Source: a virus. From it: a stretch of DNA of 34,312 bases. Made by a program: the position numbers and the translations under genes. The notes beneath the pieces are model-generated. The model was not told the origin of the DNA. It ran no database searches and was given only the letters and a program-made list of their open reading frames with translations. Of this stretch, positions 1 through 34,312 are shown piece by piece. The DNA lies in IMG/VR virus record IMGVR_UViG_3300028844_004752, positions 1-34,312 of that record, one strand, 5' to 3'. Within the stretch, counting starts at the first letter, position 1. Each line of letters opens with the position of its first letter.

Positions 1-371
1 TTTCTACCTACAATAGATAAATTTACTAGCCCAGGTCGTTCTTCAATATGAATGCCAGTTCTAACAGGAAATTCACTTTCGCATATTTCTTTATTTAGAT
101 AACCCCACATGGTGTCAGGTAGTTTTATTGTACCTCTATGAATATTCTTACCGCGTTCCCATACATCATTACCAGAACATTGATAATTACGTTTAGTCAT
201 ACCCCAAATAACTTCACCAACTTGTTCTCGCGTCTTTTGAATATCACTACCTGTAACAAGATATACATTATTCAATGTACAAAAGTCAAAGAAGAATGAA
301 CTAAACTTTTCATCCATTTTTCCACGACTAGGTGTAAGTGTGCCATCAACATCAAAGATATAATGAATCAT
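1..371 (-). CDS. Phosphomannomutase-like HAD phosphatase/mutase (partial, N-terminal part)
   Basis: The open frame begins at ATG 371 and runs off the left edge, giving about 123 residues. The start reads MIHYIFDVDGTLTPSRG, the HAD motif I DxDGT in the form typical of eukaryotic-type phosphomannomutase (PMM/SEC53: DVDGTLT followed by P-x-R). The sequence PGLVNLSIVGR near the window edge resembles the PMM segment (N-G-M-x-N-V-S-P-x-G-R). PMM converts mannose-6-phosphate to mannose-1-phosphate, the precursor of GDP-mannose. The gene overlaps the end of the PEP carboxykinase frame by ATGA, so the two are translationally coupled. The C-terminal half is outside the window; another Cof-type HAD sugar phosphatase is possible. 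Confidence 0.72.
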   Translation of the reverse strand, partial: MIHYIFDVDGTLTPSRGKMDEKFSSFFFDFCTLNNVYLVTGSDIQKTREQVGEVIWGMTKRNYQCSGNDVWERGKNIHRGTIKLPDTMWGYLNKEICESEFPVRTGIHIEERPGLVNLSIVGR

Positions 372-589
372 ATTCTATTGCCTATCAGATCCTCTAGAGT
401 TTTTAATACTTCTTTGCTCTCGTCTTGAATATTACTTTCTATGCACATTCTAACACATTTGCGAGTAAAGTCAAGAGAAAAACGCTTTCCGTCTTTATCC
501 ATTCCAGTGTTAATCAAATATACATTACAATTATTTGCATGAATTTTTTTCATCAGCAAATCACTGTATTCTTTTACAGGTCTTGGCAT
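368..589 (-). pseudogene. C-terminal fragment of PEP carboxykinase, out of frame with the main part
   Basis: This frame encodes MPRPVKEYSDLLMKKI, then VYLINTG and FSLDFTRK. These match the C-terminal region of ATP-dependent PEP carboxykinase (E. coli: Y-A-E-V-L-V-K-R-M, YLVNTGW, and a D-T-R segment). It is separated from the rest of the enzyme (574-1611) only by a 26-bp tandem duplication at 607-658; with one copy removed, the frame reads straight through as FSPCYGSPFMPRPVKEY. The ATG at 589 is an internal methionine with no visible ribosome binding site, so it is probably not an independent gene. The protein would end soon after the TRK segment and lacks the last ~70-80 residues of the bacterial enzyme. 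Confidence 0.85.
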
Positions 590-1611
590 AAATGGTGATC
601 CATAACAGGGGCTAAATAATGGTTTGATCTGAAGGGGCTAAATAATGGTTTGATCTGATTATCACCAGCTTCTGTACCAGGCATCTGACTTGTATAGCCC
701 GTTTCAAAAAATCGTCGTACTGTGTCGCCGCTAATTTTACTGTATGGTGGAAATACACCCTTTGCGTCCATAGTTAAGAAAAATATATTATCTGGATGAT
801 CAAACTTTTGAGGACTATGATATGCGTTTTCAACACATGTAATTGGATAACTTAGTCTTGCGTTTGGCACACCTGGATTTTCTACAACTAAGCAATCTTC
901 CGATCTTGCTTTTTCAACTGCATCAAAGATTGTTTTGTGTGTTTCGGGTGTAAGTCCTTCACTCTTAGCATAACATCCAGTTTCAATCATGTTTATGCCT
1001 TGCATATCCCAATAAACTTCATCGTCACTAATCAACGCATAATTTGGATCACTACTTAATGTAGTTTTACCTGTACCACTCAAGCCAAACATTAAATTAG
1101 TAGTTGCATCATATGTAAAAGCACTACAATGCATTGGTAAAATATCATGTCTCGGCAGTTCAAATCCAATGATACCAAACACACCTTTCTTAATCTCACC
1201 AAGAAAGGTGGTTCCAGCAATAAACATGGTTTTAGTATCAAGGTTTACATAGATTTTAGGATGTGGCACTTCTAATTCTGTGTTGTGCCAAATTGTCCAA
1301 TCTGGAACATAATGCCCAAATCCTTTAGGTAGTACATCAAACATATTTTTTACAAATTGTTCATGGCGTTCATCATTAGTATATACTTGAAATCTAATAT
1401 TTGCAGATTTGAATTGTAAGGGTTTTCTATAAACTTTTTCTGTTATCATTCTAGGAAGCATTCGATCTGCAAACAAAAGATAATCGTCCATATTACCAAT
1501 CTTGCAATATTTCGGTCTTTCTTTACATAACTCTGAAGTTGCTTCTCCAAAAAAGTATTTGTTCTCTGGACTACGACCTGTTGGTTTTGTTGTAATGTTG
1601 ATATTAGTCAT
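574..1611 (-). CDS. pckA: ATP-dependent phosphoenolpyruvate carboxykinase, N-terminal and catalytic part, frameshifted near the end
   Basis: The enzyme converts oxaloacetate plus ATP to PEP, CO2 and ADP, the entry step of gluconeogenesis. From ATG 1611 (MTNINITT, one base after the metK stop) the frame gives 345 residues. Visible motifs are TGRSPENKY (11-19, substrate-binding Arg of the family), LGEIKKG (137-143, metal/substrate Lys), PMHCSA (159-164, metal-binding His), the P-loop GLSGTGKTTLS (176-186), SDDE (195-198) and ARLSYP (251-256, Arg). Compared with the ~540-residue E. coli enzyme it lacks roughly 50 N-terminal residues. After SP at 325-326 the sequence becomes unrelated for 19 residues and stops. 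The correct continuation lies in the frame 368-589. The original enzyme would be about 405 residues. Whether the break is a true mutation or an assembly error cannot be told from sequence alone. Confidence 0.88.
   Translation of the reverse strand: MTNINITTKPTGRSPENKYFFGEATSELCKERPKYCKIGNMDDYLLFADRMLPRMITEKVYRKPLQFKSANIRFQVYTNDERHEQFVKNMFDVLPKGFGHYVPDWTIWHNTELEVPHPKIYVNLDTKTMFIAGTTFLGEIKKGVFGIIGFELPRHDILPMHCSAFTYDATTNLMFGLSGTGKTTLSSDPNYALISDDEVYWDMQGINMIETGCYAKSEGLTPETHKTIFDAVEKARSEDCLVVENPGVPNARLSYPITCVENAYHSPQKFDHPDNIFFLTMDAKGVFPPYSKISGDTVRRFFETGYTSQMPGTEAGDNQIKPLFSPFRSNHYLAPVMDHHLCQDL
607..658. repeat. Perfect 26-bp tandem duplication that breaks the PEP carboxykinase frame
   Basis: Positions 607-632 and 633-658 are identical 26-bp units. 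Since 26 is not a multiple of three, the second copy shifts the frame. Removing either copy restores a continuous PEP carboxykinase from 1611 to 368 with family-like sequence across the junction (FSPCYGSPF). Confidence 0.97.
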
Positions 1612-1612
1612 A

Positions 1613-2701
1613 CTACCATCCAATCTTTTCCCATGGTACATCTTTATTGCCAAAATGACCATGTACACAATTTTCACTATACTTGTAGAAGTTGAATAAA
1701 TCAAATCTATCAATAATTCCTTTTGGAGTCAAATCAATTTCATTTCTAATAAATTTTTCTATTGATCTATTATGACCATTACTATCAATGTATATACTAG
1801 TAGGCTCTTTTACTCCAATTGCATACGATAGTTGAATATTACACCAATCAGCCATTTCATCTGCTACAATATTCTTAGCAAGCCATCGGGCAATATATGC
1901 ACCACTTCTATCTACTTTTGTAGGATCTTTTCCACTAAATGCGCCACCACCATGAGGAGCAAAACCCCCATAGGTATCAACAATGATCTTACGTCCAGTG
2001 ACGCCAGCATCGCCATCTGGACCACCGATAACAAAATTACCAGTGGGATTAAGATGCCATTTAGTATTTTCATCAATCAAATCTCCTAATACACTATGTG
2101 CCGATTGCTTAGATAATTTTCTTGCAATATCGCATTTGCCTTCATCATGCTGAGTACTGATAACAACTTGATCAATGCGTTTAATATTGCCGTCGCGCCT
2201 AGGACCATTATATTCAACACTTACTTGTGCTTTTGCATCTGGACCTAAAATTTGAGATTGGCGCCTTTGTTTATTTAACTCTTTCATGATTTCATGTGAA
2301 AAATGAATAGGCGCTGGCATCATACTTTTTGTGTGATTACACGCATATCCAAACATAATGCCTTGATCGCCTGCACCAAAATCATCTGTTCCTAGTGCAA
2401 TATCATCACTTTGCTCATGAATCTTATCAGTTATAATTACATTTTTATGATGAAAACCTTCTTGCTCATAACCTATTTCTTTTATAACATTACGGACAAT
2501 TTCGGCTCTTTTAAGAAAGCCGACGTTATAATTTTTTACTTCACCAGCAATAGTTACGGAATTTGTAGTAACTAAAGTTTCTATCGCAACACGAGTCGTT
2601 TCATTACCAGCGTGTAGTCCTGCATCTACCAATGCATCTGAGATTTGATCGGCAACTTTATCAGGATGACCTGCGCTAACACTTTCACTCGTAAAAATCA
2701 T
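1613..2701 (-). CDS. metK: S-adenosylmethionine synthetase (methionine adenosyltransferase)
   Basis: The enzyme makes S-adenosylmethionine from ATP and methionine. The 362-residue protein is close to the bacterial length (about 384) and carries all signature motifs: GHPDKVADQ (11-19), GAGDQGIMFGYA (109-120), NPTGNFVIGGPDGDAG (218-233) and GGGAFSGKDPTKVDRS (251-266). It appears intact. The start overlaps the stop of the cupin-like gene by ATGA, and the stop lies one base before the PEP carboxykinase start, so it sits inside a tightly packed operon. A phage copy would raise SAM for methylation of phage DNA or RNA or for polyamine synthesis; which of these applies is inference, and no methyltransferase is visible in the window. 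Confidence 0.95.
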   Translation of the reverse strand: MIFTSESVSAGHPDKVADQISDALVDAGLHAGNETTRVAIETLVTTNSVTIAGEVKNYNVGFLKRAEIVRNVIKEIGYEQEGFHHKNVIITDKIHEQSDDIALGTDDFGAGDQGIMFGYACNHTKSMMPAPIHFSHEIMKELNKQRRQSQILGPDAKAQVSVEYNGPRRDGNIKRIDQVVISTQHDEGKCDIARKLSKQSAHSVLGDLIDENTKWHLNPTGNFVIGGPDGDAGVTGRKIIVDTYGGFAPHGGGAFSGKDPTKVDRSGAYIARWLAKNIVADEMADWCNIQLSYAIGVKEPTSIYIDSNGHNRSIEKFIRNEIDLTPKGIIDRFDLFNFYKYSENCVHGHFGNKDVPWEKIGW

Positions 2702-2883
2702 TTATGTCCTACCGTTTCTCTTATAATATCGTTGTGATTAAACTCTGCCCAATATAATTCAAACGCAACACCCGACTCTAGGCATTCAAACTGATGATAT
2801 AGACCAGGTTTTACTTTTGTATAGTCTAAAGCACAGTTGGCTTCCAGTAACTCAGTATTACCCCAAACTTTACCTGCTTGCAT
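2698..2883 (-). CDS. Small cupin-like protein, 61 residues
   Basis: Start at ATG 2883 (MQAGKVWG) is chosen because GGAG sits six bases upstream and the ATG overlaps the aldolase stop as TAATG; an ATG at 2895 is also possible. The pattern KVWG near the start, PGLYHQFECLESG, then an aromatic strand and NDIIRETVG resembles one half of a sugar-isomerase-type cupin, whose end often reads (E/D)DI(V/I)R. It is too short for a complete double-stranded beta-helix unless it dimerises. The position between aldolase and metK, near a phosphomannomutase-like gene, makes a sugar-related role plausible, but no function is shown. Confidence 0.5.
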   Translation of the reverse strand: MQAGKVWGNTELLEANCALDYTKVKPGLYHQFECLESGVAFELYWAEFNHNDIIRETVGHK

Positions 2884-3683
2884 TATTTGCTCCATTCACT
2901 TGCAATAAAAATATTATCTATATTCTCTGCTATTTGCATAGAAAATTCTCTGTCGCTCATACTATATTGTAAACCTTCACTCAATGCTCGACTAAAACTA
3001 GCACCCATATGCTCAACTCCAGAAAGTTTTCCACAAGCTTCCTGTGTTGTGTATCCACCACTTAATGCAACAATTCTTTCAACTGAATTGTAATCATAAA
3101 GCTTTTTATACCTTGTCTTATTAGTTGGAATAGTAAGTTTTAAAATAAGCTTACCTTCAAAATCACGGCATCTATTTTGTAACTGACTTTCTAATTCAAT
3201 TTCATATGAATCTTTATTCATAATATCAATAGGAACTTCTGGTTCTACTATTGGTATAAGACCTGCGTTTGCAATTCTTTGAGCAAAAATAAATTGTTGA
3301 TCTAAAATAGGACTAACGTGCCACCTATCTTTTACAATGCTTCGCATTTTCGTGCCAACACACCCGTGTTGTAATGCAAATCGAATCATTCCATCAAGAT
3401 CAAAAACTTTTAAAGTGCCTTCTGGTGTATTGCCACTATCAACTTTTAGAATAGCGTCAATATTCTTATCATTTAAATTCTTTACTAATCCTCTTTCAAC
3501 TGAGTCTTTATAGAGAATAGCATGACTAATCTTATCTTTTGTAAAGTTAGGATCAGATACCATCCGCAATCGAAATTGATTTACTTTTTCCATCTTATCA
3601 GTTTCAGTCCACTCTTGACCATAATTATCTAAAACACCACCAGCACTACCACCGGAGTTATCCATTGCTGCAATAAAAGTCAT
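2883..3683 (-). CDS. fda: Class I fructose-1,6-bisphosphate aldolase
   Basis: The enzyme interconverts fructose-1,6-bisphosphate with glyceraldehyde-3-phosphate and dihydroxyacetone phosphate. The 266-residue protein follows the bacterial class I Fda type (Staphylococcus aureus Fda is about 296 residues). Motifs in order: FIAAMDNSGGS (3-13), AILYKDSVE (55-63), KVDSG (80-84), GTKMRS (110-115), PIVEPEV (144-150), LKLTIP (181-186, with the Schiff-base lysine at 182), VALSGGYT, and ASFSRALSEGLQ near the end. All expected catalytic residues appear present. A strong AAGGAG precedes ATG 3683. Together with PEP carboxykinase and the phosphomannomutase-like gene it suggests steering of carbon toward hexose phosphates. 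Confidence 0.93.
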   Translation of the reverse strand: MTFIAAMDNSGGSAGGVLDNYGQEWTETDKMEKVNQFRLRMVSDPNFTKDKISHAILYKDSVERGLVKNLNDKNIDAILKVDSGNTPEGTLKVFDLDGMIRFALQHGCVGTKMRSIVKDRWHVSPILDQQFIFAQRIANAGLIPIVEPEVPIDIMNKDSYEIELESQLQNRCRDFEGKLILKLTIPTNKTRYKKLYDYNSVERIVALSGGYTTQEACGKLSGVEHMGASFSRALSEGLQYSMSDREFSMQIAENIDNIFIASEWSK

Positions 3684-4988: not shown

Positions 4989-5017
4989 ATTATATACGAT
5001 AATATCTGATTTGTCAA
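4989..5017 (-). promoter_or_regulatory. Consensus sigma70 promoter for mazG
   Basis: On the minus strand: TTGACA (5017-5012), 17-bp spacer, TATAAT (4994-4989), a perfect match to both boxes. The -35 box contains the TGA stop of the DUF262-HNH gene (5014-5016). Transcription would start about 20 bases before the mazG ATG at 4959. Confidence 0.9.
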
Positions 5018-6549
5018 TGAATATTGTCCAAAAGACCTTCATTAACTAAATCTATAGATTGATTGGCTGTCATTCCAGTCCCTGAGGCCTGATTATTCCG
5101 AAAAATTGATCTATATTGATCACAGTCCATTGTACCCATATCACTATTATATTTTTTTCTCACCATTGCAAAATTATCATACTCAGTTAGACCACCTTTA
5201 CTATGAGCAATCTTGTGGGCTGCTTCAGCATCTGGCATCAGTAAAGCCTCTCCATCAATATAGCATTTGTAATTTTGATCACTCAACTTGCTATCTTGGT
5301 CTGAATTACTGAAACATCTAGTAGGATCTTTCCAGACAATAAGTTTATTAATATTATTTTTCCAAACTTCATGACCTCTAATCATCTCAACAAGGTAGCG
5401 TTGCTTTTTCTCATTATCAAGGCACTTCGTATAATCTCTGTAAATTTGAGATTTTGTAAGTTCGGCAGATTCAAAAGATAATGTTACAACTTCCTTATAT
5501 TTTTTATTTGCATCATTGTAATAGTCATTGTTTACCGTATTAAGAACTTGATAAAATTCCCCATAATTAATTGGCTCTAGTAAAGAACCATGATCTTGAT
5601 AATGAGCAACATATAAGGTCAATAAAAGCTGCATTTTATATTCTGGCATTTCACCACGAGATACGCCTTTATTGGCTTTCGCCATTTCATACAAAAAGTC
5701 AAAATATTTATCTACCTTTTCTGTTAAAGATTTTACTTTTTGTTCGTTCAAACCTTTATCATTATACATTTCTTCCAAACAACTGGTCTTTCTATTACAG
5801 AGTTTTATGCCTTTATAAAAGACCCAATATGTCTGAGCAACATACTCCTCAAGTTCTAATCTTTTATTAGTCTTTTTCAGCCACTTATATTTTTCATCAC
5901 TGAGGCGCTTTAATTCAAATAAATCATGTGGATTTGACATTTTTCCACCATACGTATCAAACGGTAAGCGGACTTTCTCACGAACAGCATTAGCAATTGG
6001 AATATTGCCATAAGAGTTTAGTGTTTCCATCTGATTCGGAGGAGTTGTTTTATTTAAGGTTCGCCAAACTTTACCTTTCATTTCATTAGTCATTGGACCA
6101 TATAAAGTAAAATTCAACTTAAATTGTAGAAAAGGTTCGCGTTCATCTTCAGTTAAGTCAGAATAAGATTTACCTCTAACTTTGAATTTATTGTTTTTAA
6201 AATCTCTAATTGCCCTCTTACGGTGACCACCATCAAGTGATTCCCATGCCCATTGACTTTTTTCATGCTTAACATCTACTAATGTGATAGTGCCAAGGTC
6301 AATATTCATATATAGCATTGAATCTATTATATTTACAGATTTAGCATTATCTGCTCTAATATAAACGGAAGGTCTCTGCCCAATTGGATTGCAATCAGTT
6401 TCTTGTAGAAGCCCTGTCGCGCTCAAAAATTCTTTTATTGACTCTGAATACGTTTCACGATATAAACGCCCAGTTTCATCACTTTCACTTTTTTTATTCG
6501 GACGTTTTTTCATAGGTGTCCGTATAGGTCCGTTTGGCATACAGTTCAT
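5014..6549 (-). CDS. DUF262-like protein with C-terminal HNH nuclease domain
   Basis: The 511-residue protein has a DUF262/ParB-like N-terminal domain with SLDGGHRKRAIRDF at 104-117 (the DGxxR NTP-binding motif) and the usual follow-up LNKTTPPNQMETLN. The C-terminal ~85 residues look like an HNH nuclease: CYIDG, then EAAHKIAHSKGGLTEYDN and MVRKKYNSDMG (Cys ~429, His ~445 and ~449, Asn ~459). DUF262 joined to a nuclease is the layout of GmrSD/BrxU-type modification-dependent restriction enzymes, where NTP binding controls DNA cutting. In a phage it might attack competing phage or host DNA, or be a homing-type element; this is inference. It is transcribed from its own promoter (6595-6623). Confidence 0.7.
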   Translation of the reverse strand: MNCMPNGPIRTPMKKRPNKKSESDETGRLYRETYSESIKEFLSATGLLQETDCNPIGQRPSVYIRADNAKSVNIIDSMLYMNIDLGTITLVDVKHEKSQWAWESLDGGHRKRAIRDFKNNKFKVRGKSYSDLTEDEREPFLQFKLNFTLYGPMTNEMKGKVWRTLNKTTPPNQMETLNSYGNIPIANAVREKVRLPFDTYGGKMSNPHDLFELKRLSDEKYKWLKKTNKRLELEEYVAQTYWVFYKGIKLCNRKTSCLEEMYNDKGLNEQKVKSLTEKVDKYFDFLYEMAKANKGVSRGEMPEYKMQLLLTLYVAHYQDHGSLLEPINYGEFYQVLNTVNNDYYNDANKKYKEVVTLSFESAELTKSQIYRDYTKCLDNEKKQRYLVEMIRGHEVWKNNINKLIVWKDPTRCFSNSDQDSKLSDQNYKCYIDGEALLMPDAEAAHKIAHSKGGLTEYDNFAMVRKKYNSDMGTMDCDQYRSIFRNNQASGTGMTANQSIDLVNEGLLDNIH

Positions 6550-10016: not shown

Positions 10017-10225
10017 TTAAAATCCTCCAAAGTTCTCCTATTCAATTCAGCCAGTATTTCATGGTCAGACATATTTGGATATTCTATTCTAAAATATTGA
10101 ACCAAATCTGCATTTGCAGAACACTGCCTTGAAAATTGAATAGTTTTTCCTACAGAAAGAATAAAGTCAAAGAGACCTGTTAGACCTCTCGTTAAGAAGT
10201 TGTGCGTTGTTAGTATGTGTTGCAT
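10013..10225 (-). CDS. Small hypothetical protein, 70 residues, overlapping hsp20
   Basis: Start ATG 10225 (MQHILTTHNFLTRG) is chosen because GAGGA lies eight bases upstream; the gene then overlaps the last 59 bases of hsp20 in another frame. The end reads FRIEYPNMSDHEILAELNRR, a helical segment seen in short regulatory-type proteins, but I recognise no family. It is coupled to the next small gene by ATGA. The long overlap makes the exact start less certain than the existence of the gene. Confidence 0.55.
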   Translation of the reverse strand: MQHILTTHNFLTRGLTGLFDFILSVGKTIQFSRQCSANADLVQYFRIEYPNMSDHEILAELNRRTLEDFK

Positions 10226-10649
10226 TTGAGTTTTCCTCGTAATTGCCAATATGAATTTTACGAGGACGCATTTCTTCTGGTATAACATATTCCAATTTAA
10301 TTGCTAATATGCCATCCTGAATATCTGCTCCGTTTACTTGTACATGTTCGGACAGCCTAAAGGTTCGCTTAAATTTCTTTGTCGAAATGCCACGATGGAT
10401 AAATTCTCTACCTTTAGACACATGTTCTCCAGTAACCATCAAAGTTCTGTCTTTTACTTCAATGTTAATTTCATCTTTACTAAACCCAGCAATAGCAAGT
10501 TCAATCAAATAATCTGATTCCCCTACTTTAATAATATTGTGTGGTGGATAGTGGTCTTGAGCATGTTTTGCAGTGAATTCTAATTCCTGAAATAAATGGT
10601 CAAATCCCACAAAAGATGAACGTGGAAATAGTGTTTGTAAGCCTGTCAT
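10167..10649 (-). CDS. hsp20: Small heat-shock protein, Hsp20/alpha-crystallin family
   Basis: An ATP-independent holdase chaperone that binds unfolding proteins. From ATG 10649 (MTGLQTLFP, GGAG upstream) it has 160 residues, matching IbpA-like proteins. The alpha-crystallin domain is clear: YLIELAIAGFSKDEINIEV, TLMVTGEH, FKRTFRLSEHVQVNGADIQ, GILAIKLE and PEEMRPRKIHI (the I-x-I anchor motif). Hsp20 is a frequent gene in T4-like cyanophages and related marine phages. A sigma70-like promoter lies at 10710-10738, whose -35 region also resembles a heat-shock (sigma32) -35. Confidence 0.93.
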   Translation of the reverse strand: MTGLQTLFPRSSFVGFDHLFQELEFTAKHAQDHYPPHNIIKVGESDYLIELAIAGFSKDEINIEVKDRTLMVTGEHVSKGREFIHRGISTKKFKRTFRLSEHVQVNGADIQDGILAIKLEYVIPEEMRPRKIHIGNYEENSNATHTNNAQLLNERSNRSL

Positions 10650-10709
10650 TGTTATCTCCTTTTGATCAAGCAAGATTGTTTTAAGACCGGGTAACCCGCA
10701 TCTTATTAG

Positions 10710-13765: not shown

Positions 13766-14971
13766 TTATTTTTTACTATTTATATGTTTTAGTAAATCTT
13801 CTTTGCTACTTTTACCAGTTCTAATTGAATAGTCCAGTGCAGATTGTAATACATCTCCAATAGCTTTACCCTTAAATCCAGCTTGTGCGGCATCTCTGCC
13901 AGAGATTGGCATATCTTTTATAGCGGTGTATTTGATGCCTTTGAGTCGAGCCGACGCTGATATTTTTTGTCCTATAGCTTTCAAATACATATCAGTCATT
14001 TTAATATCTGCATTCTGAGACCATTTAACTAATTCAACGTTATCCATATTTTTCCAAGTGGCTATACTGTTGACTGAATTTACGTCAGTGTTAGATAATC
14101 TAAGTGCAGATTTTGCAACAGAACCAGCTTTTTCTCCATAACTTTTTAACATAAGTGCAACGAATACTGGAAATGCATTTTTATCTAATCTATCAATTGC
14201 TTTCTTATCAATGCTACTTTGTCTAGCGTCTTTGAAAATATGTTTCATAATACCTGAAGAAAACAAGATTTCTACTCCATGACTAGGAGATTTAGATTTC
14301 TTAAATAGCTTTTTAAATTCTTCATTAAATCTGTCGGCAGATATTGTTTTGATTGTAGAAGCTTGTTTCTTCATTTCTTTGAAAGTTTCTCTTTCAATCT
14401 TAAATTCAAATCTAGCTGCAAACTGAATGGCACGTAACATTCTCAAAGGATCATCTTCAAATGATGTAGGGCTAATCATACGAATCTGCTTATTCTTAAT
14501 GTCCTTCATACCCTTGCCATCAGTATCGATAATCTCTCCAGTATCAATATCTTTAGCAAGTTGATTTATCCAGAAATCTCTCCGTAGCTGATCTTGTTGA
14601 AGTGTAATACCTTTACCAAGCTGTACTTCAAAGTCTTTATGACCAGAGCCTGTACTTTTAGAATCAATGCGAGGCACAGAAATGTCTATATCTTCTTCTT
14701 CTGTAGAACCTGTGGGTACAAATTTTAGAATACCGAAAGATTTACCAACCATATTCACTTTACCGTGCGGCTTTAATATTCTTTCTAAATCATTGAGTTC
14801 CACACCTACGACGATAAGATCCAAGTCTTTTGAAACTTTTCCTAGTAGTTCATCACGAACCACACCGCCGATTTGGTAGATTTTACCACCAGCAGACTTT
14901 ATACTTTTTCTCACTTTCATTGAAAGTATATCAAGCATACTTTCATTCAAATGAGTTATAAAAGATTTCAT
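13766..14971 (-). CDS. cca: CCA-adding enzyme (tRNA nucleotidyltransferase) with capsid-targeting tag
   Basis: The enzyme adds or repairs the 3' CCA end of tRNA. From ATG 14971 (GGAAG five bases upstream, TAATG overlap with DUF6321) it has 401 residues. Class II motifs: QIGGVVRDELLG (33-44), KDLDLIVVG (48-56, catalytic Asp49 and Asp51), RRDFWINQLA (130-139) and DDPLRMLRAIQFAARF (173-188). The first ten residues MKSFITHLNE fit the capsid tag with an L-N-E cleavage site, and the conserved fold starts only about residue 14, so the tag is an extra. Poly(A) polymerase of the same superfamily is an alternative. Confidence 0.9.
   Translation of the reverse strand: MKSFITHLNESMLDILSMKVRKSIKSAGGKIYQIGGVVRDELLGKVSKDLDLIVVGVELNDLERILKPHGKVNMVGKSFGILKFVPTGSTEEEDIDISVPRIDSKSTGSGHKDFEVQLGKGITLQQDQLRRDFWINQLAKDIDTGEIIDTDGKGMKDIKNKQIRMISPTSFEDDPLRMLRAIQFAARFEFKIERETFKEMKKQASTIKTISADRFNEEFKKLFKKSKSPSHGVEILFSSGIMKHIFKDARQSSIDKKAIDRLDKNAFPVFVALMLKSYGEKAGSVAKSALRLSNTDVNSVNSIATWKNMDNVELVKWSQNADIKMTDMYLKAIGQKISASARLKGIKYTAIKDMPISGRDAAQAGFKGKAIGDVLQSALDYSIRTGKSSKEDLLKHINSKK
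13777..13784 (-). promoter_or_regulatory. T4-type late promoter before the 13509-13742 gene
   Basis: TATAAATA on the minus strand, in the context ACTAAAACATATAAATA, which is the same 17 bases found at the regA late promoter. It lies in the last codons of the upstream gene, 35 bases before ATG 13742. Confidence 0.68.
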
Positions 14972-15249
14972 TAGCACTTCCAGCGTTTTCTAGCTTGCCT
15001 TAAACGACTATTCGGATCTTTCGCAGCTTTTGGCCACATTTTTAACTGACCTGCGGATCTAGCGCAGTATGATTTGCGACGACCAGCATCTTTTGATCCT
15101 GGTTTAGGATTACCAGTAACTGCAGTTTTTAAATTTCCACCAGTTTTTCTATTCACAGCATCAACGCCCTTTTGCGTCATACCTGCACCACTTTTAGTTG
15201 GGCGATAATGCTTATCTTTTTCAGATAAAAATGCGATAAAACTTTTCAT
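14971..15249 (-). CDS. DUF6321-like basic protein with capsid-targeting tag
   Basis: After the tag MKSFIAFLSE|K the protein has the pattern of small phage/bacterial DUF6321 proteins: SGAGMTQKGVDAVNRKTGG, LKTAVTG, then GRRKSYCARSAGQLKMW and a final RQARKRWKC with two cysteines. It is highly basic (many Lys and Arg), so nucleic acid binding is likely. 92 residues; TAGGAG precedes the start. It lies between a small unknown gene and the CCA-adding enzyme in the tagged cassette. Confidence 0.85.
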   Translation of the reverse strand: MKSFIAFLSEKDKHYRPTKSGAGMTQKGVDAVNRKTGGNLKTAVTGNPKPGSKDAGRRKSYCARSAGQLKMWPKAAKDPNSRLRQARKRWKC

Positions 15250-15258
15250 TTATTTCTC

Positions 15259-15606
15259 CTACCAGTGCTGTACATCTGGATATCTAACAATTGCTCGGAT
15301 TGCTCTCACTGCTAGTTTTGCAGTCGGATCACCCCTATCATATAATACAACTTCTGTACCATTTACAAAATCAGATACGTTTACACCTTTACCTATAAGA
15401 GTCATTGTTCTGTGTAGATAATCGTTTTCATCATAATTGTTTTCAAATCCTGCTTTGCCTCTAACCTCAACCCACTTACTGCCTGGCAATGGTCGAATTC
15501 TTAGAATGCCCATTTTACCTTGCCTAATATATGTTAGAGCATAAGACTCTTTCTTTTTACGTTGATTTTTGGTCAATTCAGTTATGAAAGAAAAAAAAGT
15601 TTTCAT
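15259..15606 (-). CDS. Tagged protein of unknown function, 115 residues
   Basis: The N-terminus MKTFFSFITE|L is one of the best matches to the T4 internal-protein tag (MKTYQEFIAE). The remainder looks like a small beta-rich domain: SYALTYIRQGKMGILRIRP, KWVEVRGKAGFENN and VVLYDRGDPTAKLAVRAIR. No family recognised. Its start overlaps the stop of the HD hydrolase gene (15606), so the two are coupled. Confidence 0.75.
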   Translation of the reverse strand: MKTFFSFITELTKNQRKKKESYALTYIRQGKMGILRIRPLPGSKWVEVRGKAGFENNYDENDYLHRTMTLIGKGVNVSDFVNGTEVVLYDRGDPTAKLAVRAIRAIVRYPDVQHW

Positions 15607-16154
15607 TAAACGTATTCCTTAATTTTTTTCTCAATTGCTGAAATAATTTTATTATGAGTTTTACTTAGATATCTATCTTTTCTTAATTTTTTTATAGCTA
15701 AAGTAGTTTGTGCTGCATATTTCTTTTGAAAATCTTTTGGTCTAGTGTCAATATCTTGTACATTAGCGAGTCTATCTGCTAACTTAACAACTAATGACCA
15801 ACTGGACATTTTAGCCATTTTGTTTGCAATATATTCACCTTTACCAATAGCATCAGAAGCAGCCTTATCTGTAGTCAATTCTTGAACCATATCAGCCACA
15901 AGAGCACCAAACTGCTTTACCAAATCTTCATAGGTAGTGTCGGTATCCTCAAGTGTGTCATGAAGATATGCTGCCTGTATTAGGGCAGATAGATTATTAG
16001 ATTTTTTGAATTGTTTTACAAAACGCGCAACTTCTTTGGGATGATTTATATACTCACCACCACTCTTCCGAGTTTGTCCTTTATGGGCTTTTGTTGCAAC
16101 CCTTAATGCTTTTAAAGCATTTTCGTTTAAAGTATATGCGCTAAAACTCTGCAT
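15606..16154 (-). CDS. SpoT/MESH1-like HD hydrolase (putative small alarmone hydrolase) with capsid tag
   Basis: The 182-residue protein matches the hydrolase domain of SpoT/Rel enzymes, which removes pyrophosphate from (p)ppGpp. Motifs: AHKGQTRKSGGEYINHP (23-39, His24 and His38), AAYLHDTLEDTDTTYEDL (61-78, with the HD pair at 65-66 and ED at 69-70), QFGALVADMVQELT, and VKLADRLANV (123-132, Asp127). No synthetase, TGS or ACT domain is present, as in small alarmone hydrolases. The first residues MQSFSAYTLNE|N fit the capsid tag (L-N-E). It is the first cassette gene after regA. Another nucleotide substrate is possible. Confidence 0.88.
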   Translation of the reverse strand: MQSFSAYTLNENALKALRVATKAHKGQTRKSGGEYINHPKEVARFVKQFKKSNNLSALIQAAYLHDTLEDTDTTYEDLVKQFGALVADMVQELTTDKAASDAIGKGEYIANKMAKMSSWSLVVKLADRLANVQDIDTRPKDFQKKYAAQTTLAIKKLRKDRYLSKTHNKIISAIEKKIKEYV

Positions 16155-32477: not shown

Positions 32478-34312
32478 TATTTACCTTCCAATTCTTCAAC
32501 TCTTGATTTTAATTCTTTAATTGATTCGATCAAGATAGGAACAAGTTTTTCATAATAAACAGCTTTGTATCCATCAACTCTATCCACAACAACTTCTGGC
32601 ATTACCTTTTCAACTTCCTGAGCAATAACTCCAGCTTCTCTTTTATTGTTAGGTGTAGAACCTAAGTCGGCTTTTTTATTCCAATTAAATGTATAACCAT
32701 TTAAATTGTCTACTTTTTCAAGAGCATTATCAATTTTTTCTAAGTTTTCTTTAAGTCTCAAGTCCGAAGAAAATGCTGCAGTCACATTTCCAGTCGCTGT
32801 AATCGCTCCAGTTACAGCAAGAGTTGAACCATTAAACGTCATATTAGCTTCACCATTTAAAGTGTTTGCGGTTCCACTACCTGTTATGACTCTATTGTCA
32901 GCATTTGAATTAATTGTAGTTCCTGGAGATGAAGATATTTTAATTTTATCACCATTTGATGATGCAGAAGAAGTTCCTAGAATTGTTATTCCTGTACCTG
33001 CTACAAAATCTAGTCTATCTGTTCCAGAATTGGCATTTGCACTAGAAGCACTTGCAACAAACGATCCTGTACCACCATCTTCAGATATTGTGAAACCAGT
33101 ATATGCATTATCAGACGCAGATATTTTAATATCATCACTACCCGCACCACCCGCAGTTCCTGTGATTATTATTCCTGCACCTGCAGTAAAACCTAATCTA
33201 TCTGTTCCACTGGCAGCAGTGCCAATAGTGTTGCCATTAACTGTGCCACCGTCCGCAGTTAATGTAAACCCGGTATATGCATTATCACCAGATGTACCAC
33301 TAGATGCCGCTGTTATTCTACCCTGTGCATCAACAGTAATATCTGCAGTAGTATATGATCCTGCCGTTACCGTAGTATTTGCCAAGTTAATAGTGCCTGT
33401 AGAAGTAATAGGTCCGCCAGACAGTCCTGTTCCGGTAGCAACAGAAGTAACTCCAGTTACAGGCGGATCTATAAAAGTAAATGCACCAGAGCCATCAGTT
33501 TTTAAAATTTGACCAGAAGTACCGTCACTTATTCCTAGATCAGTTATTGATGTTGGTGTACCGGTAACTTCAGAGTATGACATAGTGGGAATTCTAGCTG
33601 AGTCAAAAATGCCAGAATTTATTTTTGAAGCAGCTAAATTAGGTATTCTAGCATCAGCGAGAGTGCCAGAATTTATTTTTGAAGCAGCTAAATTAGGTAT
33701 TCTAGCATCAGCGAGAGTGCCAGAATTTATTTTTGAAGCAGCTAAATTAGGTATTTCAGAAGCGTCTAAGGGATCTACATTTAGAGTATATACACCACTA
33801 CTATATACCAATTGTGCATAGTTTGCGGTACCAGAGTTTACGGCTGAAAAATGTGCCCGCGTCTCAGAGGCACTTGGTCCTGTGTAAGATATAACTCCTG
33901 TTGATGAATTATAGCTAAATGAACCATCACCACCATTGTCGGATGATCCAATAGATGCTCTTGCTCTTGCCGTAGTATGATACTGATTTGTACCCTCATT
34001 CAAGTTATCTGTATTATATCCTGATATTAAATTTGTACCGCCTGCAAGAGGACTGGCAAAAGCTTTGTTAAGTGCAAACGCATCACTATCTGCGTTATAT
34101 AATATTGTAGCACCAGCACCATCTATTGTGATGCCACCACCATCAGCGGCGGCTGCATTTGCTGCACCTTTTGCAATTTCTATATTCTTATCGGCAATAC
34201 TGAGTTCGGTGGAATTGACAGTAGTGGTTGTTCCTTGAACTTCTAAATCACCTTTTATTTGAACCGTTCCACCAATGCCATTGGCTGGTGCTGGATCAAT
34301 CACAATAGGACC
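32477..34312 (-). CDS. Tail fibre protein with C-terminal S74 intramolecular chaperone (partial, N-terminus off window)
   Basis: The frame is open to the right edge (GPIVIDPAPANG...), so the start lies outside. The end has the Peptidase S74 / chaperone-of-endosialidase pattern: SSDLRLKENLEKIDNALEKV (Ser and Asp used for self-cleavage), then GYTFNWNK, EAGVIAQEVEKVMPEVV and YEKLVPILIESIKEL. This domain folds the fibre trimer and then cuts itself off. The middle contains 18-residue tandem repeats (IPNLAASKINSGTLADAR) and two imperfect ~60-residue repeats beginning DNAYTGFT. Probably a side tail fibre involved in host binding. Confidence 0.88.
   Translation of the reverse strand, partial: GPIVIDPAPANGIGGTVQIKGDLEVQGTTTTVNSTELSIADKNIEIAKGAANAAAADGGGITIDGAGATILYNADSDAFALNKAFASPLAGGTNLISGYNTDNLNEGTNQYHTTARARASIGSSDNGGDGSFSYNSSTGVISYTGPSASETRAHFSAVNSGTANYAQLVYSSGVYTLNVDPLDASEIPNLAASKINSGTLADARIPNLAASKINSGTLADARIPNLAASKINSGIFDSARIPTMSYSEVTGTPTSITDLGISDGTSGQILKTDGSGAFTFIDPPVTGVTSVATGTGLSGGPITSTGTINLANTTVTAGSYTTADITVDAQGRITAASSGTSGDNAYTGFTLTADGGTVNGNTIGTAASGTDRLGFTAGAGIIITGTAGGAGSDDIKISASDNAYTGFTISEDGGTGSFVASASSANANSGTDRLDFVAGTGITILGTSSASSNGDKIKISSSPGTTINSNADNRVITGSGTANTLNGEANMTFNGSTLAVTGAITATGNVTAAFSSDLRLKENLEKIDNALEKVDNLNGYTFNWNKKADLGSTPNNKREAGVIAQEVEKVMPEVVVDRVDGYKAVYYEKLVPILIESIKELKSRVEELEGK
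33611..33756. repeat. 54-bp tandem repeat in the fibre gene (nearly three copies)
   Basis: Units start at 33611, 33665 and 33719 and are identical over most of their length; the third is truncated. Being in frame (18 codons) it encodes repeated IPNLAASKINSGTLADAR in the fibre shaft. Such repeats can change copy number by recombination and alter shaft length. Confidence 0.93.

What the first reader, a model, noticed from the sequence alone, without database searches (positions are those of the whole stretch)
368..1611. 26-bp perfect duplication disrupts a phage PEP carboxykinase
Removing one of two identical 26-bp units at 607-658 restores a continuous enzyme with family-like sequence at the joint. 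All visible catalytic motifs upstream are intact, so the break is recent, a mixed population state, or an assembly error. If real, this is loss of function in progress, or a reversible on/off switch by slippage or recombination between the repeats.
Basis: seen in the sequence. Interest (0 to 1): 0.62.

Follow-up and report, generated by a model that had tools for sequence, protein, structure and literature searches.

The report
Isolated duplication breaks phage metabolic gene
One assembled marine phage sequence carries a stray repeated stretch of 26 bases that cuts a metabolic enzyme gene (PEP carboxykinase) in two, while every related phage found has the gene whole, so this is most likely an ordinary fresh mutation or assembly slip and not a genetic switch.

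Summary
Two identical, adjacent 26-base units (607-632, 633-658) lie in the minus-strand gene for an ATP-type PEP carboxykinase of a T4-like phage contig. Because 26 is not a multiple of 3, the product is cut to 345 aa and the last ~80 residues, including part of the ATP site, fall into another frame. All 38 relatives whose sequence spans the joint (36, 2; some near-identical to each other) have one copy and an unbroken joint, including the nearest (97% aa identity over the N-terminal part). The exact two-copy sequence was not found in viral contigs. Both halves still look like a gene under purifying selection (dN/dS 0.07 and 0.12). It is the only frame break seen in the window against relatives. 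No perfect tandem unit of 13+ bases occurs in 1.0 Mb of related loci. There is no sign of a programmed switch, frameshift or bypass. The duplication is an isolated event without history: an assembly/consensus error or a fresh loss-of-function mutation. Without reads these cannot be told apart; I lean slightly to error. Low interest.

The parts
574..1611 (-). N-terminal part of the PEP carboxykinase gene with shifted tail and premature stop (345 aa)
   Evidence: Pfam PF01293, E 1e-67, profile 33-379; translation
633..658 (-). 26-bp unit, first copy in reading direction
607..632 (-). 26-bp unit, second copy in reading direction
   Evidence: aligned against relatives as an insertion of exactly 26 columns
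368..589 (-). C-terminal part of the gene, out of frame (73 aa from an in-frame ATG), holds GKR-x5-TR of the ATP site
   Evidence: Pfam PF01293, E 7e-10, profile 383-445; for the motif in solved PEPCKs

Best explanation
The duplication is an isolated event with no evolutionary history. In one consensus sequence a 26-bp stretch of an otherwise normal phage PEPCK gene appears twice in tandem, which shifts the frame and truncates the protein. It has no evolved function. Its origin is either an assembly or consensus error (about 0.5; for example two sequence ends that overlap by 26 bases joined without collapsing the overlap) or a very recent real tandem duplication in some or all phages of that population (about 0.42). 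If real, it is a loss-of-function allele that ordinary recombination or slippage between the copies could undo. That the event is isolated and recent is shown by the comparisons; the choice between error and mutation is inference.
For: All 36 loci with both gene parts have a 45-nt joint and one copy, and two more, L059 and L060, agree. The nearest relative L001 (97% aa identity over 317 residues) has one copy and an unbroken frame. The two-copy 52-mer has no exact match in viral contigs; a 23-mer from the unit matches only L001's contig, once. Codon changes against L001 are mostly synonymous in both halves: 45 syn/14 non, dN/dS 0.067; 11 syn/7 non, dN/dS 0.122. Few of the differing amino acids can be placed on the window's branch: 2 of 11 in the N part, 1 of 5 in the C part. 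PEPCK is the only gene split between frames when relatives' ORFs are laid on the window. The copies are letter-identical. The unit shares no base with its borders (preceding base A against its last base T; following base G against its first base T; sequence). The site lies about 600 bp from the contig end (direct reading).
Against: No reads were available, so artefact and mutation cannot be separated. No other frame break was found in the 34 kb, so the contig is not generally error-prone. 26 is not a usual assembler k-mer size, so the simplest overlap artefact would not predict it (own knowledge). Records very near the window may be left out of the collections by the tool, so a same-population contig with two copies could have been hidden.
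Confidence: 0.92

Rival explanations
1. Reversible on/off switch: the phage population gains and loses one 26-bp unit and so turns PEPCK expression off and on.
For: Unit length is not a multiple of 3, so copy number decides the frame; both halves still look constrained.
Against: No relative has any repeat at this site; no perfect tandem units of 13+ bp in 1.0 Mb of related loci; the single-copy state offers nothing for slippage to re-create the repeat.
Confidence: 0.04
2. Recoding: ribosomes frameshift or hop from a codon in copy one to the same codon in copy two and make the full enzyme.
For: Identical copies give matching take-off and landing codons automatically; T4-like phages have one known bypass case (gene 60; own knowledge).
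Against: No canonical slippery heptamer between the first copy and the stop; predicted RNA fold is weaker than most shuffles, z 0.77; no stop codon at a take-off site; no relative has the element.
Confidence: 0.01
3. Two-piece enzyme: the 73-aa remnant is translated separately from the ATG at 589, which overlaps the upstream stop, and the pieces assemble.
For: In-frame ATG 589-587 lies 11 nt before the new stop at 576-574.
Against: No ribosome-binding-like sequence upstream (CCCCTGTTATGGATCACCATTTATG); no relative is split, and the ATG is just a conserved internal Met.
Confidence: 0.02

Closest known systems
Viral ATP-dependent PEP carboxykinase (pckA) as an auxiliary metabolic gene: trench-sediment viruses (PMC12448302); Staphylococcus phage UPMK_1 MG543995
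   Same: Same enzyme family (PF01293) carried by a virus
   Different: The copy in this window is broken by a duplication; the UPMK_1 protein is only 35% identical to the intact phage protein of L001
Spontaneous short tandem duplication mutations (own knowledge)
   Same: Perfect adjacent duplication of a few dozen bases causing a frameshift
   Different: Not shown here to exist in DNA rather than only in the assembly; no homology at the borders
Tandem-repeat contingency (phase-variable) loci (own knowledge)
   Same: Copy number would decide the reading frame
   Different: Such loci keep repeat tracts over evolution; here all relatives have a single copy
Translational bypassing in T4 gene 60 (own knowledge)
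   Same: A stretch in a T4-like phage gene that would have to be skipped to make the full protein
   Different: No take-off stop, no notable structure, not conserved

Membership tests
ATP-dependent PEP carboxykinase (PF01293) | Profile match above the gathering score | tested here: met
   229 bits (cut-off 26.5) for the N part, 38.6 bits for the C part
ATP-dependent PEP carboxykinase (PF01293) | P-loop (GLSGTGKT) and the conserved GEIKKG...MHCSA region | tested here: met
   window translation compared with the alignment of L001 to solved PEPCKs
ATP-dependent PEP carboxykinase (PF01293) | C-terminal GKR-x5-TR segment of the ATP site in frame with the rest | tested here: not met
   GKRFSLDFTR lies in the out-of-frame 73-aa remnant; in frame in relatives. 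So: a broken member of the family, not an intact one
Phase-variable (contingency) locus | Repeat tract kept at the site in relatives, with varying copy number | tested here: not met
   one copy in all 38 relatives
Phase-variable (contingency) locus | Both states present in one population | not testable with these tools
   needs raw reads
Translational bypassing (T4 gene 60 type) | Stop codon and stem-loop at the take-off codon | tested here: not met
   no stop at take-off, fold not better than shuffles

The most novel reading that the evidence does not exclude
The two-copy allele is real and segregates with the one-copy allele in a marine phage population, switching an auxiliary PEPCK gene off and on by gain and loss of one 26-bp unit.
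Probability: 0.04. Interest if true: 0.55.

Novelty: already known. Interest (0 to 1): 0.1.

Why it matters
It matters mainly as quality control: a single stray duplication in one assembled contig can make an intact phage metabolic gene look lost. If the allele were real and common, it would show loss of an auxiliary metabolic gene in progress, since all relatives keep it under purifying selection.

Tried and rejected
Searched the viral collection for the two-copy 52-mer (none) and for the unit itself (only L001's contig, one copy). Searched GenBank phages by DNA (none) and by protein (only distant, under 36% identity). Looked for a slippery heptamer and an RNA structure (none). Noted a 6-bp inverted repeat GGTGAT...ATCACC flanking the unit; it is also in L001 with one copy and short enough to be chance, so rejected as a cause. 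Considered that the window's CCC (Pro) codon at the unit's end, against CCA/CCT/CCG in relatives, marks an error; one change in a region 93% identical to L001 is not informative. Literature searches on recoding and short duplications gave nothing that bears on this site.

Full report
The observation. Two identical 26-base units stand side by side at 607-632 and 633-658. This is far beyond chance: shuffled versions of the window gave no perfect tandem unit of 12 or more bases, and about 1.0 Mb of related loci gave none of 13 or more (with a positive control on the window). The repeat lies in a minus-strand gene starting at the ATG at 1611. The first part (to the stop at 574) matches Pfam PEPCK_ATP over profile positions 33-379 and the part from 589 to 368 matches positions 383-445 in another frame.

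What breaks. Reading through both copies gives ...GDNQIKPLFSPFRSNHYLAPVMDHHLCQDL and a stop, 345 aa in all. Relatives read ...IKPLFSPCYGSPFMPRP... at the same place and go on to the end of the enzyme, about 404 aa in L001. The part lost from the frame includes GKRFSLDFTR, which aligns with GKRISIKDTR of solved ATP-dependent PEPCKs, a segment of the ATP site (own knowledge of the family). The truncated product is therefore probably inactive.

Relatives. A scan of IMG/VR with the upstream part alone, so not biased towards intact genes, found 41 loci. In all 36 that span the joint the two parts are 45 nt apart, against 71 nt in the window. An independent scan with the neighbouring MetK protein added two more loci with PEPCK, also one-copy. 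Some of these loci are near-identical, so they are fewer than 38 independent lineages. The nearest, L001, is 97% identical over the N part and has one copy. A direct alignment shows the extra 26 columns in the window only. The exact two-copy sequence has no match in the viral collection. The tool warns that records very near the window may be left out, which limits this point.

Age of the break. Against L001 the N part has dN/dS 0.067 and the C part 0.122. Of the differing amino acids only 2 of 11 and 1 of 5 can be placed on the window's branch. There is thus no sign of decay after the break. When the ORFs of four related contigs are laid on the window, PEPCK is the only one split between frames, so the contig is otherwise sound.

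Mechanism. The evidence fits an isolated event without history. It may be an assembly or consensus error: the copies are letter-perfect, the borders share no base, the site is about 600 bp from the contig end, and the gene otherwise looks functional. It may equally be a fresh tandem duplication in the phage. I put these at about 0.5 and 0.42; only reads can decide. A reversible switch is unlikely, because no relative keeps a repeat and the single-copy form offers nothing to slip on. Recoding is unlikely: no slippery heptamer, no structure beyond shuffles, no conservation. A two-piece enzyme is unlikely: the internal ATG is a conserved methionine of the intact enzyme with no ribosome-binding-like sequence before it.

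Setting. The contig is 34,312 bases, a fragment, from a T4-like phage: the major capsid protein matches Gp23 and is closest to Phage C48C1 (67%), Stenotrophomonas phage DLP_6 (63%), Methylophilales phage Melnitz (62%) and Pelagibacter phage HTVC008M (61%). PEPCK has been reported as a viral auxiliary metabolic gene (PMC12448302), so the gene itself is not new as a kind, though no close relative is in the GenBank phage set.

Verdict. Ordinary; interest 0.1.

Noticed in passing
window 368-1611: The phage PEPCK family (intact in L001, about 404 aa) is much shorter than E. coli PEPCK (540 aa): it lacks stretches at both ends, and 41 viral loci carry this compact form.
   Followed up: partly
window 1-3683: PEPCK sits next to S-adenosylmethionine synthetase (1613-2701), a weakly matching class I fructose-bisphosphate aldolase-like gene (2883-3683, below Pfam cut-off) and a HAD/PMM-like gene (3-371): a small central-metabolism cluster kept in relatives.
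   Followed up: partly
window 33610-33755: Perfect 54-bp tandem array (2.7 copies) in frame in a tail-fibre-like gene (NLAASKINSGTLADARIP repeats).
   Followed up: no
window 13766-14977 and 15606-16154: tRNA nucleotidyltransferase and a metal-dependent phosphohydrolase; Hsp20 at 10167-10673.
   Followed up: no
window 5014-6549: 511-aa protein without a Pfam match at E 0.001; only a weak PHROG of unknown function; its C-terminal part looks HNH-like by eye.
   Followed up: no
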